From the IMG/VR virus record IMGVR_UViG_3300041809_003504, positions 1 through 39,091 of that record: a stretch of DNA of 39,091 bases; one strand, 5' to 3'. This document shows, one piece after another, positions 862-38,340 of this stretch (within the stretch, counting starts at the first letter, position 1; the number at the start of each line of letters is the position of its first letter). Source of the DNA: a virus. The notes beneath the pieces are model-generated. The model worked only from the letters and a program-made list of their open reading frames with translations, searched no databases and was not told where the DNA came from. The position numbers and the translations under genes were made by a program.

Positions 862-2268
862 CTAGTGCGTGAGATGGGATCGAATGAATTGAAGCATCAT
901 TGGGTCCTTACGTCTTTCCGCTAAAGTCAAGGCGGTCAAACCGTCCGGATTCACGGCCGTTATATCCGCGCCACTCGCTATCAGCCGTTCGACGGCCTCA
1001 ACGGAGCCGGCTGAGACTGCGGCCAAAAAAACGCTATTGCCACGATTGTCTCGATCATTGGGGTTCGCGCCGTGGCCCAGCAGGAGCTTTAGGGCGTCAC
1101 TACGCTCCGCCTTTATAACTGCGTTCCAGAGCGGGCTCTCGCCTACAGAGTTTTTGGCGTTCGGGTTGGCCCCATTGATAAGCAATTCGGACACAATAGC
1201 CAGCTGGTTTCTAAACACGGCGATATGCAAGGCGGTCCCCAGAATGCGGTGTGCTTTGCCGTTAATATCAGCCCCCGCCGTTAGCAGGCGATTAGTGAGT
1301 TCGGCGCTGGCCAACGCTGCAGCCGCCGTCAGGTCTTGATCCAAATCTAAACTGAGTCCGCCGGGTAGGAGCTTAAACTTAGTGCTGGCCAATCCCACGG
1401 AAGCCATGAGGGCCGTAAATCCTTCACTATCCTCTGCGTTTACGTCAGCGCCGGATCCCAAAAGGAGCTCGACCATAGGCAGGTCTTGGTTTTTAACCGC
1501 CGACATCAAGGCCGTCGTTCCATCGGCTAGCTTCACATTTGGGTCTGCACCCCCTTCTAAGAGACACCGGGCAATCGTTGTGTTCCCGATCGTGGCTGCT
1601 ATTCGAATTGCCGTGAAACCGTCCCCGTTTCGGAGGTTAACGTCAGCACCGTGCCGTATAAGACTGTCAACAATCTGCGACTGGCCCAAGTCCACGGCAT
1701 ACATCAGCGCAGTCGAACCGCCGACATCGCGGGCATCAATATTGATACCGCCTGCGATCAAGACTTCGACGAGATCGGCTCGGCACTCCGCGCCCGCGGT
1801 CTCTACGGTCAGCATCAGCGCATTGAACCCACGATCATTTTGAGCGTTCAAGTCTGCGCCACCGTCGATCAAAAGCTTGACGAGACCAGCTTGTTGTGGT
1901 TCAGCCGCAGTTTCCACGGCTAACATCAAAGCACTTGCGCCATTGCTGCTCTTGGCGTTGACATCGGCACCACTCGCAATGAGCAGTTCGATTACCGGGA
2001 GATGCCGGGCCTCCCCCACGGCGGATACTATAGCCAACATTAATGCCGTGCGGCCATCCTTCGTCCTTGTGTTGACCCCTGCTCTATCGATAGAAATGGC
2101 GAATTGCGCCAGGTCCCTGTCCCCACGTCGAACCGCCCAATGCAGTGGCGTGAAACCTTGATCATCGCGAGCGCTGGTGCTTGCTCCTTGGCTCAACAGG
2201 CTACGAACTGACGACGCGTCGCCCTTCTGCATCGCTTTTAATAGCTTCGAATCAATACTCCCCCACAT
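862..2268 (-). CDS. Ankyrin-repeat protein, 468 aa
   Basis: The protein is almost entirely tandem ankyrin repeats, roughly 12-13 units of about 33 residues, with recurrent hallmark segments such as GADVNAK, GFTALML, GFTPLHWAV and GANPNAKN. Each unit shows the usual helix-turn-helix (G-TALM-A) and loop (GADVN) pattern. Ankyrin arrays bind other proteins; no catalytic domain, signal peptide or membrane segment is present, so it would be a cytoplasmic binding scaffold. It lies between the tape measure gene and a tail gene on the same strand. Codon composition is visibly less GC-rich than in neighbouring structural genes. Ankyrin proteins in prophages are known host-interaction or cargo genes; here the role is unknown. 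ATG at 2268 has only a weak upstream purine run. Confidence 0.9.
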   Translation of the reverse strand: MWGSIDSKLLKAMQKGDASSVRSLLSQGASTSARDDQGFTPLHWAVRRGDRDLAQFAISIDRAGVNTRTKDGRTALMLAIVSAVGEARHLPVIELLIASGADVNAKSSNGASALMLAVETAAEPQQAGLVKLLIDGGADLNAQNDRGFNALMLTVETAGAECRADLVEVLIAGGINIDARDVGGSTALMYAVDLGQSQIVDSLIRHGADVNLRNGDGFTAIRIAATIGNTTIARCLLEGGADPNVKLADGTTALMSAVKNQDLPMVELLLGSGADVNAEDSEGFTALMASVGLASTKFKLLPGGLSLDLDQDLTAAAALASAELTNRLLTAGADINGKAHRILGTALHIAVFRNQLAIVSELLINGANPNAKNSVGESPLWNAVIKAERSDALKLLLGHGANPNDRDNRGNSVFLAAVSAGSVEAVERLIASGADITAVNPDGLTALTLAERRKDPMMLQFIRSHLTH

Positions 2269-19631: not shown

Positions 19632-20897
19632 TCATGCGGCCAGGTGCAGCCGCTCCACCGCCAGGTCTTTGAAGGCGCGCCCGTCGCTTTCGAGCACCGC
19701 CTGCTTGCCGCTGTACTCCTGCCAGCGGCGGATGATCACGTCGCAGTACTTCGGCTCCATCTCGATCAGCCGCGCCTGGCGTCCCGACCGCTCACAGGCG
19801 ATTAAGGTCGAACCCGATCCGCCAAACGGATCGAGCACGGTGTCCCGGCTCTTGCTTGAGTTGCGCAGCGCGCGATCCACCAGCTCGACCGGCTTCATCG
19901 TCGGATGCAGATCATTGGCCACCGGCTTCTTGATGAACCAGACGTCGCCCTGATCCCGCGCACCGCACCAGAAGTGGTCGGTGCCTTCCTTCCAGCCGTA
20001 AAGGACCGGCTCGTACTGCCGTTGATAATCCGACCGCCCCATCGTGAAAGTGTTCTTCGCCCAAATGACAAACGTAGACCAGTGGCCGCCCGCCTCTGTG
20101 AAGACACGGTGCAGCGTATGTAACTCCGAGGACGACATGCAGATGTAGATCGCGCCCTTGGTGACCGCCAGCATGTTGACGCAGGCATCGCGCAGGAACT
20201 GTTCGAAGTCCGCGCCGAGATTGTCGTTGGCGATCTTCCGCGGCTTCTTCCCCTTCTGGCCCCGCAGCTTGTCCTTCATGGTCGCGCCGTAGTTCACGTT
20301 GTACGGTGGATCGGTGAAGACCATGTCGGCGAGGCCTCCGGCCAGTACCTTTTCGACCGCTTCCATCTGTGTTGAGTCGCCGCAGAGCACCCGGTGCTCG
20401 CCCAGCACCCAGACGTCGCCGGGTACCGTGACCGCCGTCTCCGGCAACTCCGGCGCGGTGTCCTCGTCGGTGTTGCCTTCAACGACCTGCTCTGGATCGC
20501 GAAGCAGATCTTCGATCTCTTCATCGGTGAAGCCGACGATGTCCAGATCGAAGCCGTCCTCACGCAGGGACTCCAGTTCGACCTTTAGCATCTCCTCGTC
20601 CCATCCAGCATCGAGCGCCAGACGATTGTCGGCGAGCACCAGCGCGCGGCGCTGCGTTTCGGTGAGGTGCCCGAGGACGAGCACGGGCACCTCGGTCAAT
20701 CGGAGCTTCCGTGCGGCGAGCAGTCGAGCGTGGCCGGCGATGATCACGCCATCCGGTCCGACGAGGATCGGGTTGACGAACCCGAACTCGGCGATCGATG
20801 CCGCAACCTGCGCCACCTGGCTCTCAGAGTGAGTGCGCGCATTGCGGGCGTACGGGATCAACCGCTCGACCGGCCATCGCTCGACTTGAAGCTCCAT
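19632..20897 (-). CDS. ParB domain-DNA methyltransferase fusion (DPPY type)
   Basis: The 421-residue protein joins an N-terminal ParB/sulfiredoxin-like domain (about 1-140, with RLIPYARNARTHS and GHARLLAARKL) to a DNA amino-methyltransferase. The catalytic motif is DPPY (196-199, TDPPYNVNYG), and the AdoMet-binding motif DPFGGSGST lies near the C-terminus (about 356-364), the beta-class order. DPPY favours N6-adenine methylation. Such fusions are frequent in phages and probably protect phage DNA from host restriction; no partner endonuclease is present. A second fusion lies at 21803-23329. Its ATG overlaps the upstream stop by one base (TAATG). Confidence 0.9.
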   Translation of the reverse strand: MELQVERWPVERLIPYARNARTHSESQVAQVAASIAEFGFVNPILVGPDGVIIAGHARLLAARKLRLTEVPVLVLGHLTETQRRALVLADNRLALDAGWDEEMLKVELESLREDGFDLDIVGFTDEEIEDLLRDPEQVVEGNTDEDTAPELPETAVTVPGDVWVLGEHRVLCGDSTQMEAVEKVLAGGLADMVFTDPPYNVNYGATMKDKLRGQKGKKPRKIANDNLGADFEQFLRDACVNMLAVTKGAIYICMSSSELHTLHRVFTEAGGHWSTFVIWAKNTFTMGRSDYQRQYEPVLYGWKEGTDHFWCGARDQGDVWFIKKPVANDLHPTMKPVELVDRALRNSSKSRDTVLDPFGGSGSTLIACERSGRQARLIEMEPKYCDVIIRRWQEYSGKQAVLESDGRAFKDLAVERLHLAA

Positions 20898-21245: not shown

Positions 21246-21815
21246 TTACGCGGTCGTTTTCGGCTGTGCCTGGTTGACGGTGTTGGCGATCGCCGTGGTC
21301 GCCGTGGTGAGGGCCTGGACGATCTGCTGCAGCGTGGCGAGGACCGGGGTGATGGTCGCGTCCACCTGCTTGGCAACGGCGGCGGCCACGGTCTGGGCAT
21401 CCACGCCCACGCCGGCGGCGCTGACGTCGGTCGCGCGATTGGCGGGAACGGCGCCCGCCGTGAGGTTGGAGCCGGAGCCGCGGGTCACCGGGTTCAATTC
21501 GTCGGTCCACAGAGCATCAGCCGCGACATCGGCGTGCCGGATGGCCTGCTTGCCGACCATGTTGGCGGTCTCGACCGCGTTCTGCAGAGCCTGCGAGGCA
21601 ATCTGGTTCAGTCGCGTGGTCTCAATCAGCGACTGTCGCGCGGCCTGGACGTCCAGATCCTGGTACACGTCGTAGGTGCGCTTGATGTTGGCGTACGTCA
21701 CCCGCTGGTTCTCGTTGTGGGTGGCGCCGCCGGTGGCGTTGGCGTTCTTGAAAGACTCGTCCGTCCCGGTTTCGAACTCGCGTTCGCCCTGGTTCGGAGT
21801 GGCTACTTCGGGCAT
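21246..21815 (-). CDS. Hypothetical Ala/Thr-rich helical protein, 189 aa
   Basis: I do not recognise this protein. The start ATG 21815 has AAGGAG at a good distance. The N-terminus is polar and Asn/Gly-rich (GTDESFKNANATGG), the middle is a long helix (DLDVQAARQSLIETTRLNQI and onward to about 95), and the C-terminal part is Ala/Thr/Val-rich helix (VAAAVAKQVDATITPVLATL). It contains no Cys. The composition is reminiscent of minor virion or injected proteins, yet its place between two methyltransferase genes gives no functional clue. Its 5' end overlaps the 3' end of the second methyltransferase by 13 bp. Confidence 0.65.
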   Translation of the reverse strand: MPEVATPNQGEREFETGTDESFKNANATGGATHNENQRVTYANIKRTYDVYQDLDVQAARQSLIETTRLNQIASQALQNAVETANMVGKQAIRHADVAADALWTDELNPVTRGSGSNLTAGAVPANRATDVSAAGVGVDAQTVAAAVAKQVDATITPVLATLQQIVQALTTATTAIANTVNQAQPKTTA

Positions 21816-23329
21816 GCTTGGTTTTCTCCTTGGTTGAATTGATCGTTCGGCTTGCGCGCTGCGGTGACCGCGCTAAAGGTCTCTCCGGTCTCCGCAAGGA
21901 CCGGCTCTGTCTGGGTCAGGTTCTCGATCCGGCGCAGGATCACGTCGCAGTATGCGGGCGAGATCTCGCAGCCGTAACCGGCTCGATCGAGTACGTGGGC
22001 GGCGGCTATCGTGGTCCCGCTCCCGAGGAACGGATCAAACACGATGTCGCCGGGATCGCTGAAGGCTTTTACGAAGAACTCGACAAGCGGTCGCGGGAAC
22101 GGAGCCGAGTGCGATCCCTGACTACTCTCGGTCTTGACCTCGATCACGTTGCTCGGGCGCGCGATCCCGCCATGCCGTCCATCGAGGTTGTTCGCATTGC
22201 GGCGAGTGGTCTGCCAGGAATCGTGGTTCTTACCCTGGTCCGCCGCCGCGCCGCGCGGCCCGGTGCCCAGGAGGCCGCTGCCGGATGTGGACGTAGGGTT
22301 GTCGGGCGAGTAGTCGAAACAGTCGTCCGACCAGTGACCTACCTCCTTCGGCCGGAACTTGATCTTCTCCTGACGGCAGAAGTGAAACACCGGCTCCCAG
22401 GCGTTCTTGAAGCGGTTACCCCAGCCACCCGGTACGCCATCGTCGGTCTTGCGCCAGCAGAGTTCGTCTACAAATCGCCAGCCCCACTGCTCGACATGGG
22501 CGATGGTTAGCTTCTTGACGTAGAGATTGCGTTGGCCGCCGTCGGCGTGCTCCTTGATGTTGAGAAAGTAAGAGCCATCGGGTACCAGAATCGCTGCGAT
22601 GTTCGCGGCCACGTCGCGGAACCAGGTCACGTACTCCCCGGGTGGGACGGGCCGGAACCCGCTCGACGGATCGTACGCGCGCTGCGAGGCATAGGGCGGC
22701 GATGTGATCGCCATGTTCGTCCGCTTCCCATCGAATAGCCGCGCCACGACCGCTGAATCGCGGCAATCGCCGCAGATCAGTCGGTGTTTTCCGATCGACC
22801 AGACGTCCCCGGACCGCGTGACCGGATCAACTGGCGCCTCGGGGATCTCTTCTTCCGCGCCAGGCGACTCGCCGGACGCCGGTTCGGCATCCGCCAGTAG
22901 CGTTCGAAGCTCGTCTTCCGTGAACCCGAGGACTTCGAGGTCGAGGTCGGCCTCCTTCAGGTCGGCCAACTCGCCCCGGAGCAAATCATCGTCCCATCCT
23001 GCCTGTTCGGCCAGCTTGTTATCGGCCAGGATGTAGGCCCGCTTCTGCGTTTCCGAGAGGTGATCGAGCACCACGACGGGCACGTGATCGAGCCTGAGTT
23101 TGCGCGCCGCGAGCAAGCGTCCGTGCCCGGCGATGATGCCGGCGTTGGTGTCCACGAGGATGGGGTTGTTGAAGCCGAACTGCGCGATGCTGGCCGCGAT
23201 CTGTGCCACCTGTGCGTCCGAGTGAGTGCGCGCGTTGCGCGCGTACGGCACCAGCTTGTCGACCGGCCAGAGCTCGATCCGCCTGGCCATTGCCTGGGAA
23301 GTCTCGGGTGGCAACTCAGTGGCAACCAT
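21803..23329 (-). CDS. ParB domain-DNA methyltransferase fusion (TSPPY type)
   Basis: A 508-residue paralogue of the neighbouring fusion. The ParB-like domain (about 20-150) is very similar (KLVPYARNARTHSDAQ, GHGRLLAARKL), but the catalytic motif is TSPPY (209-213) instead of DPPY. The AdoMet motif DPFLGSGTT lies at about 432-440. SPPY is typical of N4-cytosine methyltransferases, so the two enzymes probably modify different bases or sites (inference). The central region between the motifs is longer than in the first copy (it includes LYVKKLTIAHVEQWGWRFVD). No restriction partner is visible. Confidence 0.9.
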   Translation of the reverse strand: MVATELPPETSQAMARRIELWPVDKLVPYARNARTHSDAQVAQIAASIAQFGFNNPILVDTNAGIIAGHGRLLAARKLRLDHVPVVVLDHLSETQKRAYILADNKLAEQAGWDDDLLRGELADLKEADLDLEVLGFTEDELRTLLADAEPASGESPGAEEEIPEAPVDPVTRSGDVWSIGKHRLICGDCRDSAVVARLFDGKRTNMAITSPPYASQRAYDPSSGFRPVPPGEYVTWFRDVAANIAAILVPDGSYFLNIKEHADGGQRNLYVKKLTIAHVEQWGWRFVDELCWRKTDDGVPGGWGNRFKNAWEPVFHFCRQEKIKFRPKEVGHWSDDCFDYSPDNPTSTSGSGLLGTGPRGAAADQGKNHDSWQTTRRNANNLDGRHGGIARPSNVIEVKTESSQGSHSAPFPRPLVEFFVKAFSDPGDIVFDPFLGSGTTIAAAHVLDRAGYGCEISPAYCDVILRRIENLTQTEPVLAETGETFSAVTAARKPNDQFNQGENQACPK

Positions 23330-24083: not shown

Positions 24084-25292
24084 ATGGCTCACATCGTCAA
24101 GAGGGACGATTGCATCTGGTTCAAACATCTGCCGCCAGATCTTCGAGATATCCTCTTGCGCTTCGCAGTTTCTGAACCAATCACATTGCTGTTGAATGGT
24201 CACGAAACCGTCTGGTGCCGCATGCGAAGCGGCCCATCTGGCCCAACGCCGGGGATTCGGATCATTAATGGGGCTGAGGTCTGGAGATCCCTTCCTCGCG
24301 GGGTTGAGTTCTCATTAGCCGTTGGAGTCCATCGGGACGTGCAGGTGCACACGAGCCCACCGGTGGTCGATCTGAGAAAACATGCGGCGGGGTTCCCGGA
24401 TAAGGATCTGCTCTTTGGAGAATATCTCTTCGCAGATTATTCCGGGGCTGCTGCGGAGCACTCTCAGCGAAGGGCGATAAAGGTGGCCACTGCCGCGCCG
24501 GAGCGCCCGGCGTCATTGGAACTGGGCAGTTTCACGCGAGAATCACTTGTGGATTTCATGCATCGCAAACTGCAGTCCGCATCGGAGCGTGGCGTCAGAA
24601 TGTGTCTGGGCCAGGATCATTCCTACGGCTTTCCCTTGGGTCTGGCGCAGGAACTTGGGAACGATGCCCTGCCATGGCGATCTGCCATCGCAAGCTTGCT
24701 CGATGGAAGCTATGGAGACGACGCGTCTCGTTTCACCGGTGTCGCGGAATTCGCGGCGGGAATCAACGCGTGGCTTCGCGCGCACGGGAAGAAAGACTAT
24801 TTCTGGTCCGCCACCCAGAAGGGCTATGGGCTGCCAACGAGCAACCCGAGAAGCCGGGCGGATAGCGGTTTCTCGCGCATTACTGATACCAGGCCGAGTT
24901 CTTTCGGACGCGGTTCGCCGATGCCGTTCAGCAGGGTCGGGGATAACGGGTCCGTTGGCGGGCAATCTCTCTGGGGGATTTCGATGCTGCGTCAGCTGAT
25001 GGCACGGTGCGACCGGGATGGAATTCGCCTTCGGTGTTGGCCGTTCGACGGGTTGTCGCTCACATTGCCGGAATACGAGAACGCGCATGTGCTGGTCGAG
25101 GCTTATCCGTCAGCACTTCGGGGCGTTGAAGTTCCACAGTCCGATGAAGCTGATGCTCTTTGCACCGCTGAAGCGCTTCGAGTGGCGGATATGGAAGGGC
25201 AACTCGGTACATTGCTCGATCTCTCCGGCATAGCCGATGAGTTCAAGCCAGCGATTAGGTTTGAGGGTTGGATTGTTGGACAGCGGATATGA
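24084..25292 (+). CDS. Putative RNase H-fold nuclease, DUF429-like, with N-terminal extension
   Basis: A 402-residue protein and the only + strand gene between 19.2 and 37.8 kb. Residues 112-400 have the outline of DUF429 predicted RNase H-like nucleases: first strand with an acidic residue (YLFADYSGAAAE, Asp 118), second acidic strand (VRMCLGQDHSYGFP, Asp 178), then VLVEAYPSA (Glu 339), SDEADALCTAEA (Asp 354/357) and the closing FEGWIVG. These acids could form a metal-binding site. Residues 1-110 are an extra beta-rich domain I do not recognise. It is flanked by phage operons on the other strand and its 3' end overlaps the converging gene by 38 bp, as expected for an inserted cargo gene. Family assignment is by eye. 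Confidence 0.55.
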   Translation: MAHIVKRDDCIWFKHLPPDLRDILLRFAVSEPITLLLNGHETVWCRMRSGPSGPTPGIRIINGAEVWRSLPRGVEFSLAVGVHRDVQVHTSPPVVDLRKHAAGFPDKDLLFGEYLFADYSGAAAEHSQRRAIKVATAAPERPASLELGSFTRESLVDFMHRKLQSASERGVRMCLGQDHSYGFPLGLAQELGNDALPWRSAIASLLDGSYGDDASRFTGVAEFAAGINAWLRAHGKKDYFWSATQKGYGLPTSNPRSRADSGFSRITDTRPSSFGRGSPMPFSRVGDNGSVGGQSLWGISMLRQLMARCDRDGIRLRCWPFDGLSLTLPEYENAHVLVEAYPSALRGVEVPQSDEADALCTAEALRVADMEGQLGTLLDLSGIADEFKPAIRFEGWIVGQRI

Positions 25293-26022
25293 CGGACCGT
25301 CTGATCCAAGGCTGCTCAACATCGGGATTATAGAACCGCATTCGCGTCTCCCTGGGCGACGGTCCAATTAGCTCGATCGACTGGCGGGTGACCTCGCCGA
25401 TCCGTTGTTCAGCGCCGACATAGCAGACCAACCCGTACGGGGGCCCGATGGGGTGGCGCTCGTATCCGTCGCAGAAGTACAAGTTCTCCATGGACCATCC
25501 GAGTGCCAGTGCCTGATCGCGGATTTGATCGACGAAGCCGCGCGCCCGGGCGAGCCTCTCAGACTCCGGGCTTATTCTTGCCGGGGCTGGCTCAACCGGC
25601 TTCGGCTTCTCGAACTCGTCGGGCAGCGGCGGCCGATATTTCTCCAGATCGAGATTCCGCAAGCCGTCCAGCAATGTCTGCTCGCCGAATGCCTTGATCG
25701 CGCGTGCCTGAACATCGTTGAAGCGCTGCCGCAACTCGTCGAACGCTTCCGCCGGCACGCGCCCGGCGTCTGCGGCGGACTTGACTCCATGCATCCTGAG
25801 CTTGAGCCATGCGAAGTACTCCGGATCGAGGCGCCGGTAGCAACGGTCGTTGATCTGGCAGTCGCGCGCAATGAAGCCCGGATCACGCGGGCACCAGACT
25901 CTCAGGTCGGTCGAGACCCAGAGTATTTCAGAATCGTTACAATCTGCGGGGACTCGCGGGGACTCTGCGGGGACTGAAATCGACGAGTCCCCGCACCTTA
26001 ACTCATTCTGGTTCAGTGGCAT
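25255..26022 (-). CDS. Hypothetical protein downstream of iteron array
   Basis: The frame is open from 26103, but its first part simply translates the iteron DNA (repeated SPR/VPA residues). The only ATG before the conserved-looking region is at 26022 (MPLNQNELRCGDSS), inside the array, with no Shine-Dalgarno. The body has a Cys-containing start (RVWCPRDPGFIARDCQINDR), a charged helical part (EAFDELRQRFNDVQARAIKA), a Pro/Lys-rich linker and a C-terminus with LYFCDGYERHPIGPPYG. Function is unknown. As the last gene of the replication operon, touching the array, it could be an array-binding or replication accessory protein (inference). Confidence 0.6.
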   Translation of the reverse strand: MPLNQNELRCGDSSISVPAESPRVPADCNDSEILWVSTDLRVWCPRDPGFIARDCQINDRCYRRLDPEYFAWLKLRMHGVKSAADAGRVPAEAFDELRQRFNDVQARAIKAFGEQTLLDGLRNLDLEKYRPPLPDEFEKPKPVEPAPARISPESERLARARGFVDQIRDQALALGWSMENLYFCDGYERHPIGPPYGLVCYVGAEQRIGEVTRQSIELIGPSPRETRMRFYNPDVEQPWIRRSVISAVQQSNPQT

Positions 26023-26260
26023 AGCTGGATTTGCGGGGACTTGCGGGGACTTTCGAGGGGTCGGAGCCCATACGCGTATGCGCGGGTCACGTGATGTGCA
26101 CAATGCGTTGTGTGCATATTCTCGTATGCGTGAAAGGGGGAAAGAGTCCCCGCAAGTCCCCGCAAATCGTTGTAAGTATATGGAGAACAGTCACTTAACC
26201 TGCGGGGACTCTCCAAAATGAGTCCCCGCAGAGTCCCCGCGAGTCCCCGCAATTTGTAAC
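25936..26260. repeat. Dyad-symmetric iteron array: 12 copies of GCGGGGACT, candidate origin
   Basis: The 9-mer GCGGGGACT occurs exactly on the + strand at 25946, 25956, 25967, 26033, 26043 and 26202, and as AGTCCCCGC at 25986, 26145, 26155, 26221, 26232 and 26242. Every copy has a mirror partner: start plus partner end always equals 52196, so the array is symmetric about 26098. GTTACAA (25936) and TTGTAAC (ends 26260) are mirror partners too. Adjacent copies are spaced by 10-11 bp. The sequence between the repeats has diverged between arms. The centre holds short palindromes (CATACGCGTATG at 26069-26080; CACAATGCGTTGTG around 26099-26112). It lies next to the primase-helicase stop (26278). 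Confidence 0.9.
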
Positions 26261-26277: not shown

Positions 26278-28725
26278 TTAGGCATCAGCCACCACCTTCC
26301 ATCGCGCGACTTTGCCGTGCGCGTCTCCGCTGGCGCGCTCGACGCGCATCTGGCGTTTGCCAAACCGCCGACCCCGGCGCGAATTGAATGCGACGCCCAG
26401 CCGCTGCTTGAACTGCCCTTCGCGGTCCATCCAGCGGGTCAGGTCGATCGGGAGCGCATTCCGCAATTCCTCCGCGCGATCGGTGAGGACGGACTGGCGC
26501 ACCAGTTCCTCGTAGGATTTCTCGTTGAGCCTCTCCCACAGTTCGGCAATGGTGAACGCCGCACCCTGGAATGCATCCTCGATCGCCTCCAGAAAGGTCT
26601 CCCAGTCGGTCCGTTCAATGTCGGATTGCTCGAACAGCTTTTCGCTGTTGGCCAGGAAGCCTTCGACGCGGGCGTATTCGAGAATCCCGGCAACAACCTC
26701 GGTCCAGCGTTCAAAGCTGCCCACCGGCGGAACGGATGACTTCGGTTGGCCCGCCGCAAACCAAGCGCGCGCCAGCGTCAGCATGGCGATGAGCAGATCC
26801 CGGCGGTGTTCGACGAGATACTCCTTCAGCCGTTCATGTTTGAAACCAGTGCGCCGGAAGGGATCGGAGCAGCCGGCGTCCATGCGAATCCAGTAGCATC
26901 GCCGCGCCATGTCGCCGCCGAGCTGTAGGTTATTGCCGGTGGCGATCCAGGAACAACGAACCGGCACCGACACAGTCTGGGATTTGCCGAGCAGCCGGTC
27001 CCGGTGCATTTCGCCGGTGATGACCTTGGCCAGGTCGCCCCAGTCCACCGTCGTCGTGACGTTGTCGATGATCACCAGCGGCGGGGCCTCGATCAGGATG
27101 CTCGTCAACTGCTTGCGCCACTCTTCTGGTTCCGTTGGCGCGGACATCAACTCCGCGGCGCGCCCGGTGAGAATGATGGCGATCACTTCGGCGAGCAGCG
27201 TCTTGCCCGTCCCCTGGGTGGTCGCGTCAAAGAGCGCGAGCGGCACGGGCCCGCTGATAATATGGCGGCAGACCGACGTCAGCATCGCGCCGACGGCATT
27301 GGCATAGCTCGACTGATCGACGAAGGGGAAGTCGCCGATAGCGTCGCGAATCACCTCGAGGGCAACCTCGATGTGGTCGCTGCATGGCTGCTCAGGAATC
27401 TCGATGTCCTCCAAACCCGGGGAGGGGACGAGGTACAAGCGGCTGGCGGCGTCATACCCAGGCTGCGCGAGAACCGTGCCGTCCGGCCGCAGGGTGGGTG
27501 CTTCGACAACCGCCTCGAGTACAGGAAACCCCCAACTGGCTGGGTTCCGCGCCTGGATGTTCTTGGCGACGTCCAATGGAGGCGGCACCTCCTTCCGCAC
27601 GCCGCGCGCGGAGAGCTCGTAGAAATCGGCGGCCTGTGCCAGGTAGTGGCGCAGCTTCGTCTCGTCAAAGTCGGCGATGAACGGACGGCCCAGTTCTGTG
27701 GCTTCAATGCACGCGATGCGACAGGCGCGGACGAAGAGCTGGGGCGGCGTGTTCGATGATCTCAGCGCGTCGAAGCCGTCTTGGCAAATTGTTCGAAACG
27801 GGCGATCGTTGACCTGGATCTGGGGAATGCTCGGCGTCGCTGCTGCCTGACCGGATCCCGGCTGCGGATCTGGAGTGCTGCCATCGTTGCAACCGTCCTG
27901 GCCGGCGACAACCGATGCCTGGGAGATGGCTTCATCGATGGCGGCGCGCGTGCCGCCGCCCGCAATCCAATCCGATGCATCCTTGCCGACAGGGATTTGA
28001 ACGATCCGCAGTTCCTTGACACGATGCCGAATGGCCTGGAACACGATCTCGGCGTGCTTTTGCCCGGGCGTGTCATTGTCGGGGAGAATGACCACCCGCT
28101 TTCCCTCAAGGCTCTCGGTGTAGTTCTTCAGCCACTTGCCCGCGTGGTTGCACGCCCCGCCCGGATTGCATGTCGCTACGAACCCGAGCTGCTCCAGGCT
28201 CTCGACGTCCTTCTCACCCTCGACGACTAGCACCTGCTCGGCGGCCGCCACCTTGGGCAGGCGATACAACACCCGGCTGATGCCTTTGATGTTGTACTCC
28301 CATGAGATCCCGGCGCTGGTTCCATCCATCTTGACGACGCGCCGCCGCTGTCGAAACGTCTTCGGCTCGTACCGCACCACCTGAAACAGGAACTCCCCAT
28401 TCGCATCGGTGTAGTCATAGGTGGCGACTTCCCTCAATTTCGCCGGCCCCCGGATCGGCCGTCCCACGATGGAGTTCACTTCCTGGCGGCATTCTTTCCA
28501 TGGGCGCCCGGATAGTTCCTGTTCCAGTTGCAGGATGTTCCAGCCGCGGCCGCACTGCGAATGACAGTACGCAAGTCCGTTCTTCGGGTTCACCGCAAAG
28601 TTGGCGTCGTCGCCTTGATGGACGGGGCAGGAACCGCGCCACTCCGGGCCCGCCTGCTTCAGGCCCGGAAACCGCGTTCGGTAGTAGCTCGCGACCTCGG
28701 ATGAATTGAAATCCGCGGCCTTCAT
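26278..28725 (-). CDS. Phage primase-helicase (CHC2 zinc, TOPRIM, P-loop ATPase)
   Basis: The 815-residue protein has three parts. An N-terminal CHC2 zinc-binding domain shows C33, H36, C54 and C58 (CPVHQGDD and YCHSQCGRG). A TOPRIM domain follows, with VLVVEGEKD (165-173) and DND at 216-218. The C-terminal ATPase has Walker A TTQGTGKT (502-509), Walker B PPLVIIDN (548-555), a sensor-like ATGNN (595-599) and an Arg-finger-like RRCYWIR (608-614). It should prime and unwind at the phage fork. It overlaps the helicase gene upstream by four bases, and the iteron array follows its stop after 17 bp. Confidence 0.92.
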   Translation of the reverse strand: MKAADFNSSEVASYYRTRFPGLKQAGPEWRGSCPVHQGDDANFAVNPKNGLAYCHSQCGRGWNILQLEQELSGRPWKECRQEVNSIVGRPIRGPAKLREVATYDYTDANGEFLFQVVRYEPKTFRQRRRVVKMDGTSAGISWEYNIKGISRVLYRLPKVAAAEQVLVVEGEKDVESLEQLGFVATCNPGGACNHAGKWLKNYTESLEGKRVVILPDNDTPGQKHAEIVFQAIRHRVKELRIVQIPVGKDASDWIAGGGTRAAIDEAISQASVVAGQDGCNDGSTPDPQPGSGQAAATPSIPQIQVNDRPFRTICQDGFDALRSSNTPPQLFVRACRIACIEATELGRPFIADFDETKLRHYLAQAADFYELSARGVRKEVPPPLDVAKNIQARNPASWGFPVLEAVVEAPTLRPDGTVLAQPGYDAASRLYLVPSPGLEDIEIPEQPCSDHIEVALEVIRDAIGDFPFVDQSSYANAVGAMLTSVCRHIISGPVPLALFDATTQGTGKTLLAEVIAIILTGRAAELMSAPTEPEEWRKQLTSILIEAPPLVIIDNVTTTVDWGDLAKVITGEMHRDRLLGKSQTVSVPVRCSWIATGNNLQLGGDMARRCYWIRMDAGCSDPFRRTGFKHERLKEYLVEHRRDLLIAMLTLARAWFAAGQPKSSVPPVGSFERWTEVVAGILEYARVEGFLANSEKLFEQSDIERTDWETFLEAIEDAFQGAAFTIAELWERLNEKSYEELVRQSVLTDRAEELRNALPIDLTRWMDREGQFKQRLGVAFNSRRGRRFGKRQMRVERASGDAHGKVARWKVVADA

Positions 28726-36826: not shown

Positions 36827-37771
36827 TTACTCTGTTGGCCGCCCTTCAGCGCTCGCCACACCGGGTTGAGCCAGGCTTCCCGGCGAAGGCAGTGCCTTCG
36901 CGGGACCGGCCAGACGCTTGGGTGTCTTCGCCGATGCCAGTTTTTTGATGGATGGTTCTGCCGGCAAGTTTTCGGGCACAACTCCGCCCAGTTGCTGGAT
37001 GGTCGCTCTTACCGCCTCCCCGACCTGACGGTGTGTGTGAACAGCGAGTTTTTCACCCTTCACCTTCTCCCTGCGCAACTTGTCTTCCGCCTGCGTGATC
37101 CGGAACTCGTTAGCCGCCAACTCGGTACGCCCGGCTCGGTCCAGCAGATCGTCCTTCGGCGAAATGCCTTTGCGCGCCTTGATGTCCTGAAGGCCGAATC
37201 CGTACAAACCCCGGTATCCGGCGTCGTGAAACAGACCGTAGTTCTGGACGCCCGCATCCTTCGCCGCCGAATTCAGGCTGCGGTTGGCCTCTTTCACCCG
37301 CTGCCGCATCTCTGCCCTCCGCAACTCGGGGCTCTGATCCCGGATCTCCTGACGGCGGGTCTGCACTGCGAAGTAGGTCTGGGCGAGGCCCACTGCCGCT
37401 TTCCGGGGATCACCGTTCATCGCGATCAGGTAGCAGGCATACCGGGAAAGAAACATGTCGGTCCTCTGGACTTCCGCTCCCTTTCCAGCCTGTATCCCCT
37501 TCGTGACCTCATGGAACTGATCACCTGCGTCCACTCCGGCACTCTCGCATGCCATCTTTGCCTTCTCTATCACATTCGCGAAGTTCTCCCAGCTGGTATA
37601 CCCTAGCAGCGGTTGAAGGTCACGTGCCATCCAATACGCCACCCCGTTGGGAGAAACCCGTTTGCATGCCTCCAATTGATTGACTAGAAGCGGTCTGGCT
37701 TGATCCAAGAGGACCTCCTTCCCCCAAAGGTTAACAGACGAGCGGGGGTTCGCACAATAGCCGTTTTCCAT
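36827..37771 (-). CDS. dinD: DinD-like DNA damage-inducible protein
   Basis: The 314-residue protein has the DinD layout: an N-terminal BRO-N-like domain (YWMARDLQPLLGYTSWENFA, VIEKAKMACESAGVDAGDQF), RTDMFLSRYACYLIAMNGDP, GLAQTYFAVQTRRQE, and the C-terminal part with NYGLFHDAGYRGLYGFG and ELAANEFRITQAEDKLRRE. In E. coli DinD is SOS-induced and inhibits RecA filament activity. The start at ATG 37771 is chosen because the longer frame (TTG 37846) runs through the divergent promoter of the next gene. The C-terminal 50 residues are Pro/Ala-rich and probably disordered. No perfect LexA box was noted upstream. Confidence 0.82.
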   Translation of the reverse strand: MENGYCANPRSSVNLWGKEVLLDQARPLLVNQLEACKRVSPNGVAYWMARDLQPLLGYTSWENFANVIEKAKMACESAGVDAGDQFHEVTKGIQAGKGAEVQRTDMFLSRYACYLIAMNGDPRKAAVGLAQTYFAVQTRRQEIRDQSPELRRAEMRQRVKEANRSLNSAAKDAGVQNYGLFHDAGYRGLYGFGLQDIKARKGISPKDDLLDRAGRTELAANEFRITQAEDKLRREKVKGEKLAVHTHRQVGEAVRATIQQLGGVVPENLPAEPSIKKLASAKTPKRLAGPAKALPSPGSLAQPGVASAEGRPTE

Positions 37772-37793
37772 CTTGCGCAGTCTTTTCCATTTA

Positions 37794-37823
37794 TTGACTT
37801 CCCGCCCTTGCTGGTCATATACT
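37794..37823 (+). promoter_or_regulatory. Sigma-70-type promoter for the winged-helix gene
   Basis: TTGACT (37794-37799) and TATACT (37818-37823) each match the consensus in five of six bases and are 18 bp apart. The predicted start of transcription is near 37830, leaving a short leader with GAGGG before the ATG at 37846. It is the best promoter seen in the window. Confidence 0.7.
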
Positions 37824-37845
37824 GGATCTTCCTGAGGGCCAACCA

Positions 37846-38340
37846 ATGAAATTCCGCGACGACCTACTCAAGCGTATAGAAAAGAAGGAACTGGAGATCC
37901 GGGATCTGGAGAAGCAGCTCGCGGCAGCCAATGCCTACCTCCAGGCGCTTCAGGAAACCATTCGGATTCTCCCGAAAGAACCATTCGGAAGTTCTGCTTC
38001 CCCCGCCCAAGTTCTGCGGCCGGGAAGCGCGGTGGCGAAGGCGCGCGAGGCGATCCTGAAGGCCGGCAAGCCCTTGCATATCACGGAGCTCTTGAAATCG
38101 CTCGGCCGCCCGGTGGACAAGAATAGCCGGGTCTCGCTGAGCGGCTCGCTCAGCGGCTACGTGAAGCGGAATGAGATTTTCACGCGCCCCGCTCCGAACA
38201 CTTTCGGTTTGATCGAACTCAACCACAGCGAGATGCCGGAGGATGAACCGCCCGAAGATTTCGGATCGCTCCCCGAGGACGAACAGGAGACGCCGGAAGC
38301 GCCAACTACTGGCATAACGGACGACGATGTGCCCTTCTGA
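37846..38340 (+). CDS. Coiled-coil plus winged-helix protein
   Basis: A 164-residue protein with an N-terminal coiled coil (about 5-42: DLLKRIEKKELEIRDLEKQL and onward), a winged-helix domain at about 63-125 (KAREAILKAGKPLHITELLK, SLGRPVDKNSRVSLSGSLSG, then FGLIEL) resembling HARE-HTH-type domains, and an acidic Pro/Glu/Asp-rich tail. It probably binds DNA. A strong promoter and GAGGG ribosome site precede it. It is followed on the same strand by the SNF2 helicase after 205 bp and lies back to back with the DinD-like gene. Its role with the helicase is unknown. Confidence 0.7.
   Translation: MKFRDDLLKRIEKKELEIRDLEKQLAAANAYLQALQETIRILPKEPFGSSASPAQVLRPGSAVAKAREAILKAGKPLHITELLKSLGRPVDKNSRVSLSGSLSGYVKRNEIFTRPAPNTFGLIELNHSEMPEDEPPEDFGSLPEDEQETPEAPTTGITDDDVPF

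What the first reader, a model, noticed from the sequence alone, without database searches (positions are those of the whole stretch)
25936..26260. 325-bp perfectly mirrored iteron array next to the phage primase gene
Twelve exact copies of GCGGGGACT are arranged six per strand, and each copy has a partner at exactly mirrored coordinates (coordinate sums all 52196). Outer GTTACAA/TTGTAAC marks are mirrored too. The sequence between the repeats has diverged while spacing is preserved to the base, which suggests selection for geometry, i.e. for bound protein. Pairs are spaced by 10-11 bp, about one helical turn. Location after the primase-helicase gene suggests a replication origin; a partition site, a control region for the last operon gene or a palindromic mobile repeat are alternatives. 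I know of no described element with this layout, but have not searched.
Basis: partly seen in the sequence, partly recalled or inferred. Interest (0 to 1): 0.85.

Follow-up and report, generated by a model that had tools for sequence, protein, structure and literature searches.

The report
Mirror-symmetric phage replication origin
A soil-bacterium phage carries, just after its primase-helicase gene, twelve copies of a 9-letter DNA word arranged as six plus six mirror images around a 93-base centre; comparison with a laboratory-tested plasmid shows it is very probably the start site of DNA replication, and the same layout recurs in many phages and plasmids with different words.

Summary
In detail: twelve exact GCGGGGACT, six per strand, all mirrored about 26098, none elsewhere in the 39,091-bp virus record. 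It is very probably the phage's replication origin: a mirror-symmetric iteron origin 3' of a self-loading D5/SF3-type helicase. The helicase half is 31% identical over 532 residues to RepA of Streptomyces plasmid pWTY27; that RepA is published to bind the iteron region 3' of its gene (PMC3583192), and the same mirrored layout is there with another word. Of 97 non-redundant relatives, 83 have at least six copies of one 7-mer in the 420 bp after the stop, against 1 of 194 control stretches. Inner spacers diverge independently but keep equal length, without base-pair covariation: geometry, not a hairpin, is kept. The 93-bp centre is inverted between close relatives. The outer left triplet's perfect mirroring looks like a recent inverted copy. 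Closest described kind: SaPI/PICI origins (two iteron sets around a melting region, 3' of rep); this is a variant with a non-AT-rich, invertible centre and a six-plus-six grammar.

The parts
25936..26260 (.). whole origin array: twelve 9-mers in two mirrored arms around a 93-bp centre; centre of symmetry 26098
25946..25954 (+). iteron GCGGGGACT (outer left)
25956..25964 (+). iteron GCGGGGACT
25967..25975 (+). iteron GCGGGGACT
25986..25994 (-). iteron, reversed member of the left arm
25995..26032 (.). left inner spacer, 38 bp; begins ACCTTAAC (conserved TTAA mark); holds the start codon of the next ORF
26033..26041 (+). iteron, inner left pair
26043..26051 (+). iteron, inner left pair
26052..26144 (.). 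centre, 93 bp, 56% GC, alternating purine-pyrimidine run of 16; inverted between related phages; probable melting/priming region (inferred)
26145..26153 (-). iteron, inner right pair
26155..26163 (-). iteron, inner right pair
26164..26201 (.). right inner spacer, 38 bp; ends CTTAACCT (26194-26201)
26202..26210 (+). iteron, reversed member of the right arm
26221..26229 (-). iteron
26232..26240 (-). iteron
26242..26250 (-). iteron (outer right)
25936..25942 (+). GTTACAA mark, part of the near-identical outer arms; its mirror TTGTAAC is at 26254-26260
26278..28725 (-). primase-helicase, 815 aa: CHC2 zinc finger + Toprim primase, D5/SF3-type helicase, C-terminal domain proposed to bind the iterons
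25255..26022 (-). ORF of unknown function downstream of the origin; its first codons contain four iterons, frame open in relatives

Best explanation
The array is the phage's replication origin. The 815-aa primase-helicase encoded just upstream of it (in the direction of transcription) binds the twelve 9-mers through the C-terminal part of its helicase half. Two sets of subunits assemble, one on each six-site arm and facing each other, probably as two hexamers. They melt the 93-bp centre, load onto the two strands, and the Toprim primase on the same polypeptide primes bidirectional synthesis. Shown here: the array, its place, its conservation with homologous helicases, the same layout in pWTY27, equal arm lengths without base pairing, and inversion of the centre in relatives. 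Inferred: binding of this protein to this array, double-hexamer loading, melting of the centre, and origin activity.
For: Helicase half 31% identical over 532 aa, E=2e-63, to pWTY27 RepA, through to the C-terminus. That RepA binds its iteron by EMSA and footprint, and repAB plus the 300-bp iteron is the minimal replicon, replicating bidirectionally (PMC3583192). The pWTY27 iteron lies directly 3' of repA with orientation string >><>><<><< and concentric inverted repeats. At least 6 copies of one 7-mer 3' of the helicase: 83 of 97 loci vs 1 of 194 elsewhere and 0 of 97 gene ends. The window's exact orientation string recurs in actinobacterial loci with a different word; palindromic strings 14 of 71 vs 1.8 expected (maximum 7 in 2000 shuffles); 12 sites is the commonest number. 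In the phage family the word changes in concert (GCGGGGACC, GCGGGGATA) while the layout stays. Inner spacers have equal length in both arms though they do not evolve in concert. The helicase half folds like D5/SF3 helicases, SaPI5 Rep and PriRep1 among the matches. SaPI/PICI Reps recognise iterons 3' of their gene.
Against: No binding or replication data exist for this phage. The isolated C-terminal model (pLDDT 88) has no PDB match with E below 0.1, so a winged-helix iteron-binding domain is not confirmed. GC skew shows no sharp turn at 26.1 kb. The centre is not AT-rich (56% vs about 62% GC). Some relatives lack a clear array directly 3' of the helicase: L041, L042, L081, L082; L040 has a partial one displaced about 2.3 kb. 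L020 and L021 have degraded ones.
Confidence: 0.88

Rival explanations
1. A stem-loop (cruciform or RNA hairpin) is the selected feature: the arms pair and the helicase or a transcript-level process recognises the structure, as proposed for pRN1 and by the pWTY27 authors.
For: Arms 78% complementary; pRN1's 100-bp stem-loop 3' of its replicase gene is essential (PMC4234260); pWTY27 authors drew a folded model.
Against: In six relatives the mirrored inner spacers pair in 57.0% of cells against 58.4% (sd 1.5) in shuffles, with no excess of compensatory changes; left-right identity within a phage (0.52) equals that between phages (0.53). No Rfam match.
Confidence: 0.06
2. An operator: the array controls transcription of the downstream ORF 25255-26022 or of the replication operon, with the helicase or another regulator as ligand.
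For: It lies in the gap before that ORF and overlaps its start.
Against: The downstream gene differs between replicons (unknown ORF, DEAD helicase, ParA, helix-turn-helix protein, others) while the upstream helicase is the constant partner; no sigma-70-like promoter. Autoregulation in addition to origin function is not excluded.
Confidence: 0.05
3. A partition (parS-like) site for the ParB-N methyltransferases or another centromere binder.
For: Two genes with ParB-like N domains fused to methyltransferases.
Against: Those genes are several kb away and no ParA was identified among the window proteins scanned; the array tracks the helicase in replicons with quite different gene content.
Confidence: 0.02
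4. A mobile palindromic repeat that inserted next to the primase gene.
For: Inverted arrangement with terminal marks.
Against: Single place in the phage and in three Acidobacteriota genomes; found 3' of homologous helicases across phyla with different words.
Confidence: 0.01
5. An invertible regulatory switch: the centre flips between inverted iteron pairs to turn a promoter.
For: Centre is inverted between relatives, at least two and by parsimony about four changes on the helicase tree.
Against: No sigma-70-like promoter found; no recombinase found among the window proteins scanned; flips seen only between species, not within one sample; a symmetric origin tolerates flips passively.
Confidence: 0.02

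Closest known systems
SaPI / PICI replication origins (rep-ori; PMC6092414, and PMC7581432 citing Ubeda et al. 2007)
   Same: Directly 3' of the initiator helicase gene; two sets of short iterons flanking a central region; SaPI5 Rep, a D5/Primase_Cterm-class initiator, is among the Foldseek matches of the window helicase half.
   Different: Centre not AT-rich; six-plus-six mirrored orientation grammar; centre inverted between relatives; carried by phages, plasmids and bacterial-genome loci rather than phage satellites. [quoted passage not shown]
pWTY27 RepA/iteron origin of Streptomyces (PMC3583192)
   Same: Homologous helicase (31% over 532 aa); iteron array 3' of repA; same mirrored layout and equal inner spacers in the two arms.
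   Different: Word GTGGGAAC, ten exact sites, shorter centre; RepA is separate from its primase-polymerase RepB, and the primase is prim-pol, not Toprim. The authors explained binding by a hairpin.
Satellite phage P4 alpha protein with its origin
   Same: One polypeptide with Toprim primase, helicase and a C-terminal origin-binding domain that binds repeats (as summarised in PMC4234260, citing Ziegelin and Lanka 1995 and Yeo et al. 2002).
   Different: P4 iterons and layout differ (from memory, not tested); the C-terminal model here matched no PDB entry.
pRN1 / Bordetella phage BIP-1 stem-loop 3' of a primase-helicase gene (PMC4234260)
   Same: Origin (pRN1) or proposed origin (BIP-1) directly 3' of the replicase gene; symmetric DNA.
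   Different: pRN1 has no iterons and needs an intact stem-loop; here no pairing is maintained in the inner spacers.

Membership tests
SaPI/PICI-type origin | origin immediately 3' of the initiator helicase gene | tested here: met
   array ends 17 bp from the helicase stop codon
SaPI/PICI-type origin | two sets of iterons flanking a central region | tested here: met
SaPI/PICI-type origin | central region AT-rich | tested here: not met
   centre 56% GC against about 62% nearby; a distant relative, L157, does have an AT-rich centre
SaPI/PICI-type origin | initiator C-terminal domain binds the iterons | not testable with these tools
   needs a binding assay; the C-terminal fold was not matched to a known domain
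SaPI/PICI-type origin | carried by a phage-inducible island | tested here: not met
   window encodes its own terminase, portal, protease and major head protein
pWTY27-type RepA/iteron origin | homologous RepA-type helicase | tested here: met
pWTY27-type RepA/iteron origin | iteron array 3' of repA with direct and inverted copies | tested here: met
pWTY27-type RepA/iteron origin | RepA footprint on the array, autonomous bidirectional replication | not testable with these tools
   known only for pWTY27
P4 alpha-type initiator | Toprim primase + helicase + origin-binding domain in one chain | tested here: inconclusive
   primase domains met, helicase fold met, C-terminal origin-binding domain not confirmed
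stem-loop origin (pRN1 type) | conserved base pairing of the arms | tested here: not met

The most novel reading that the evidence does not exclude
A cross-phylum class of double-hexamer loading origins: a mirror grammar (>>><>><<><<<, six plus six sites) is kept while the recognition word, spacer sequence and host change, and the unpaired centre can be turned round by recombination between the arms. Geometry would then define the origin, and the grammar could be used to find origins in unannotated phages, plasmids and integrative elements.
Probability: 0.5. Interest if true: 0.75.

Novelty: new variant of a known kind. Interest (0 to 1): 0.62.

Why it matters
It assigns a replication origin to phages of Acidobacteriota, where little is known of phage replication. 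It joins phage, plasmid and bacterial-genome origins under one layout that had been described as unique to phage-inducible islands, and gives a sequence-only way to find such origins. Twelve sites in two mirrored sixes suggest a directly testable stoichiometry (one hexamer per arm) for self-loading D5-type helicases.

Tried and rejected
Hairpin or RNA reading: no covariation in the inner spacers, no Rfam family. Mobile repeat: one place per genome. Concerted evolution as the sole cause of symmetry: rejected for the inner arms, accepted for the outer triplet of the window lineage. Confirmation of a winged helix at the C-terminus by fold search failed; a profile search of PDB sequences gave only repeat artefacts. 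Helical phasing as a rule: not supported (8-20 bp in relatives). GC skew: uninformative. Phages RpAliso and phiAsp2, with related helicases, show no array 3' of the gene. The permutation test on spacer equality is inflated because the 7-mer chosen differs between loci; only within-locus equality is used. AICE RepAM (DUF3631) was considered and set aside as a different initiator family by annotation. Searches failed on input errors.

Full report
What is there. The window is an entire IMG/VR virus record of 39,091 bp (possibly a fragment) with terminase, portal, protease, major head protein and other head genes. The array at 25936-26260 is as described: six GCGGGGACT on each strand, all mirrored about 26098, none elsewhere. 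Gap permutation never gave six mirrored pairs in 1,000 trials. Read in the direction of transcription, the order is primase-helicase gene (26278-28725, minus), array, then an ORF of unknown function (25255-26022, minus) whose first codons contain four of the words.

Relatives of the phage. Nine viral loci encode close relatives of the primase-helicase, and Bryobacteraceae and other Acidobacteriia MAGs carry further ones, mostly at 74-90% identity in the helicase half, so the host is very probably an acidobacterium. Nearly all have an array directly 3' of the gene. The word changes in concert: GCGGGGACC in ten of twelve sites of L018, GCGGGGATA in most sites of L023, L024 and L080. In L017-L020, L023 and L024 the outermost left pair points the other way, so the perfect outer mirror, including GTTACAA/TTGTAAC, belongs to the lineage of the window, L016 and L022 (and probably L009, cut by its contig end); in the window it is nearly identical between arms (38 of 40). 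It looks like a recent inverted copy.

Geometry versus base pairing. The two inner spacers are 38 bp in the window group and 28 bp in the sister group, the same in both arms of every relative measured except L077, which differs by 1 bp. Their sequences are more alike between phages on the same side (0.61, 0.62) than between sides, and left-right identity within a phage (0.52) is no higher than between phages (0.53). Mirrored positions show no covariation (57.0% paired vs 58.4 +- 1.5 in shuffles). So equal length is kept without concerted evolution and without pairing: a protein-binding layout, not a stem.

The centre flips. The 93-bp centre of the window aligns with that of L018 only as reverse complement (score 87 vs 29; null maximum 38.5), likewise L020, L077 and, more weakly, L021 and L079, whereas L016, L017, L019, L022 and L076 align directly. 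On the helicase tree this needs about four changes, at least two on well-supported branches, though the tree is poorly resolved and exchange of origins between phages could mimic flips. Recombination between the inverted inner pairs would do this. The origin therefore appears to work in either orientation of its centre. The centre is only slightly poorer in GC than its surroundings but rich in alternating purine-pyrimidine runs (16 in the window, up to 26 in L021).

Beyond the phage family. A DNA pattern scan found the same word in other phages whose isolate relatives lie in Streptomyces genomes, again 3' of a homologous helicase, there fused to a prim-pol. Plasmid searches led to pWTY27. Its RepA is 31% identical to the window helicase half over 532 aa. 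Published work shows a minimal replicon of repAB plus the 300-bp iteron, specific RepA binding by EMSA, DNase footprints within 405-509, and bidirectional replication (PMC3583192). The iteron there reads >><>><<><< with concentric inverted repeats around one centre. An alignment-based search gave 46 viral and 80 genomic loci. Of 97 loci non-redundant in their 3' sequence, 83 have at least six copies of one 7-mer within 420 bp after the stop, against 1 of 194 other stretches and 0 of 97 gene ends; symmetry scores of 25 or more occur in 56 against 2 and 0. Twelve sites is the commonest number, 14 of 71 orientation strings are exactly palindromic (1.8 expected), and the window's string occurs in eight loci, the window included, with different words (which strand of a word counts as forward is arbitrary). 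A virus assigned to Methanosarcinales (L157) has nine GCGGGTA around an AT-rich centre in the same place. Non-redundant here means by sequence, not independent by descent.

How it probably works. The helicase half folds like D5/SF3 helicases, with SaPI5 Rep and PriRep1 among the matches (model). SaPI Reps recognise iterons directly downstream of their gene through their C-terminal domain and appear to bind as two hexamers (PMC7581432). By analogy each six-site arm seats one hexamer; the two face each other, melt the centre and leave in opposite directions, and the fused Toprim primase starts synthesis. The C-terminal domain here has helices and a terminal strand pair compatible with a winged helix, but no PDB match, so that step is inference.

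Comparison with the known. [quoted passage not shown] The present element shares place and plan but not the AT-rich centre and not the satellite life style. pRN1 has a stem-loop origin 3' of its replicase and a similar stem-loop was noted in a Bordetella phage (PMC4234260); the absence of maintained pairing separates the present case. I rate it a new variant of a known kind.

Limits. Everything about the phage itself is sequence inference. Unit finding used exact 7-mers, which undercounts degenerate arrays (L020, L021) and varies in register between loci. Literature access was limited to open papers.

Noticed in passing
window 19632-20897 and 21803-23329 (-): Two separate genes joining a ParB-like N domain to a DNA methyltransferase in one phage.
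   Followed up: partly
window 862-2268 (-): 468-aa ORF made almost wholly of ankyrin repeats next to the structural genes of a phage.
   Followed up: no
window 25946-25994 within ORF 25255-26022 (-): Four iterons lie in the first codons of the next ORF and the frame stays open in relatives (L016-L019, L021, L077): DNA that is both coding and origin.
   Followed up: partly
L157 3970-4390: Virus assigned to Methanosarcinales has nine GCGGGTA words 3' of its helicase around an AT-rich centre: the plan may reach archaeal viruses.
   Followed up: partly
L040 6397-6461 and L160: Origin-like words displaced about 2.3 kb 3' of the helicase gene, with a degraded second half.
   Followed up: partly
L018, L020, L077, L021, L079: Centre of the origin inverted relative to the window.
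   Followed up: yes
window 36827-37846 (-): Bro-N domain gene.
   Followed up: no
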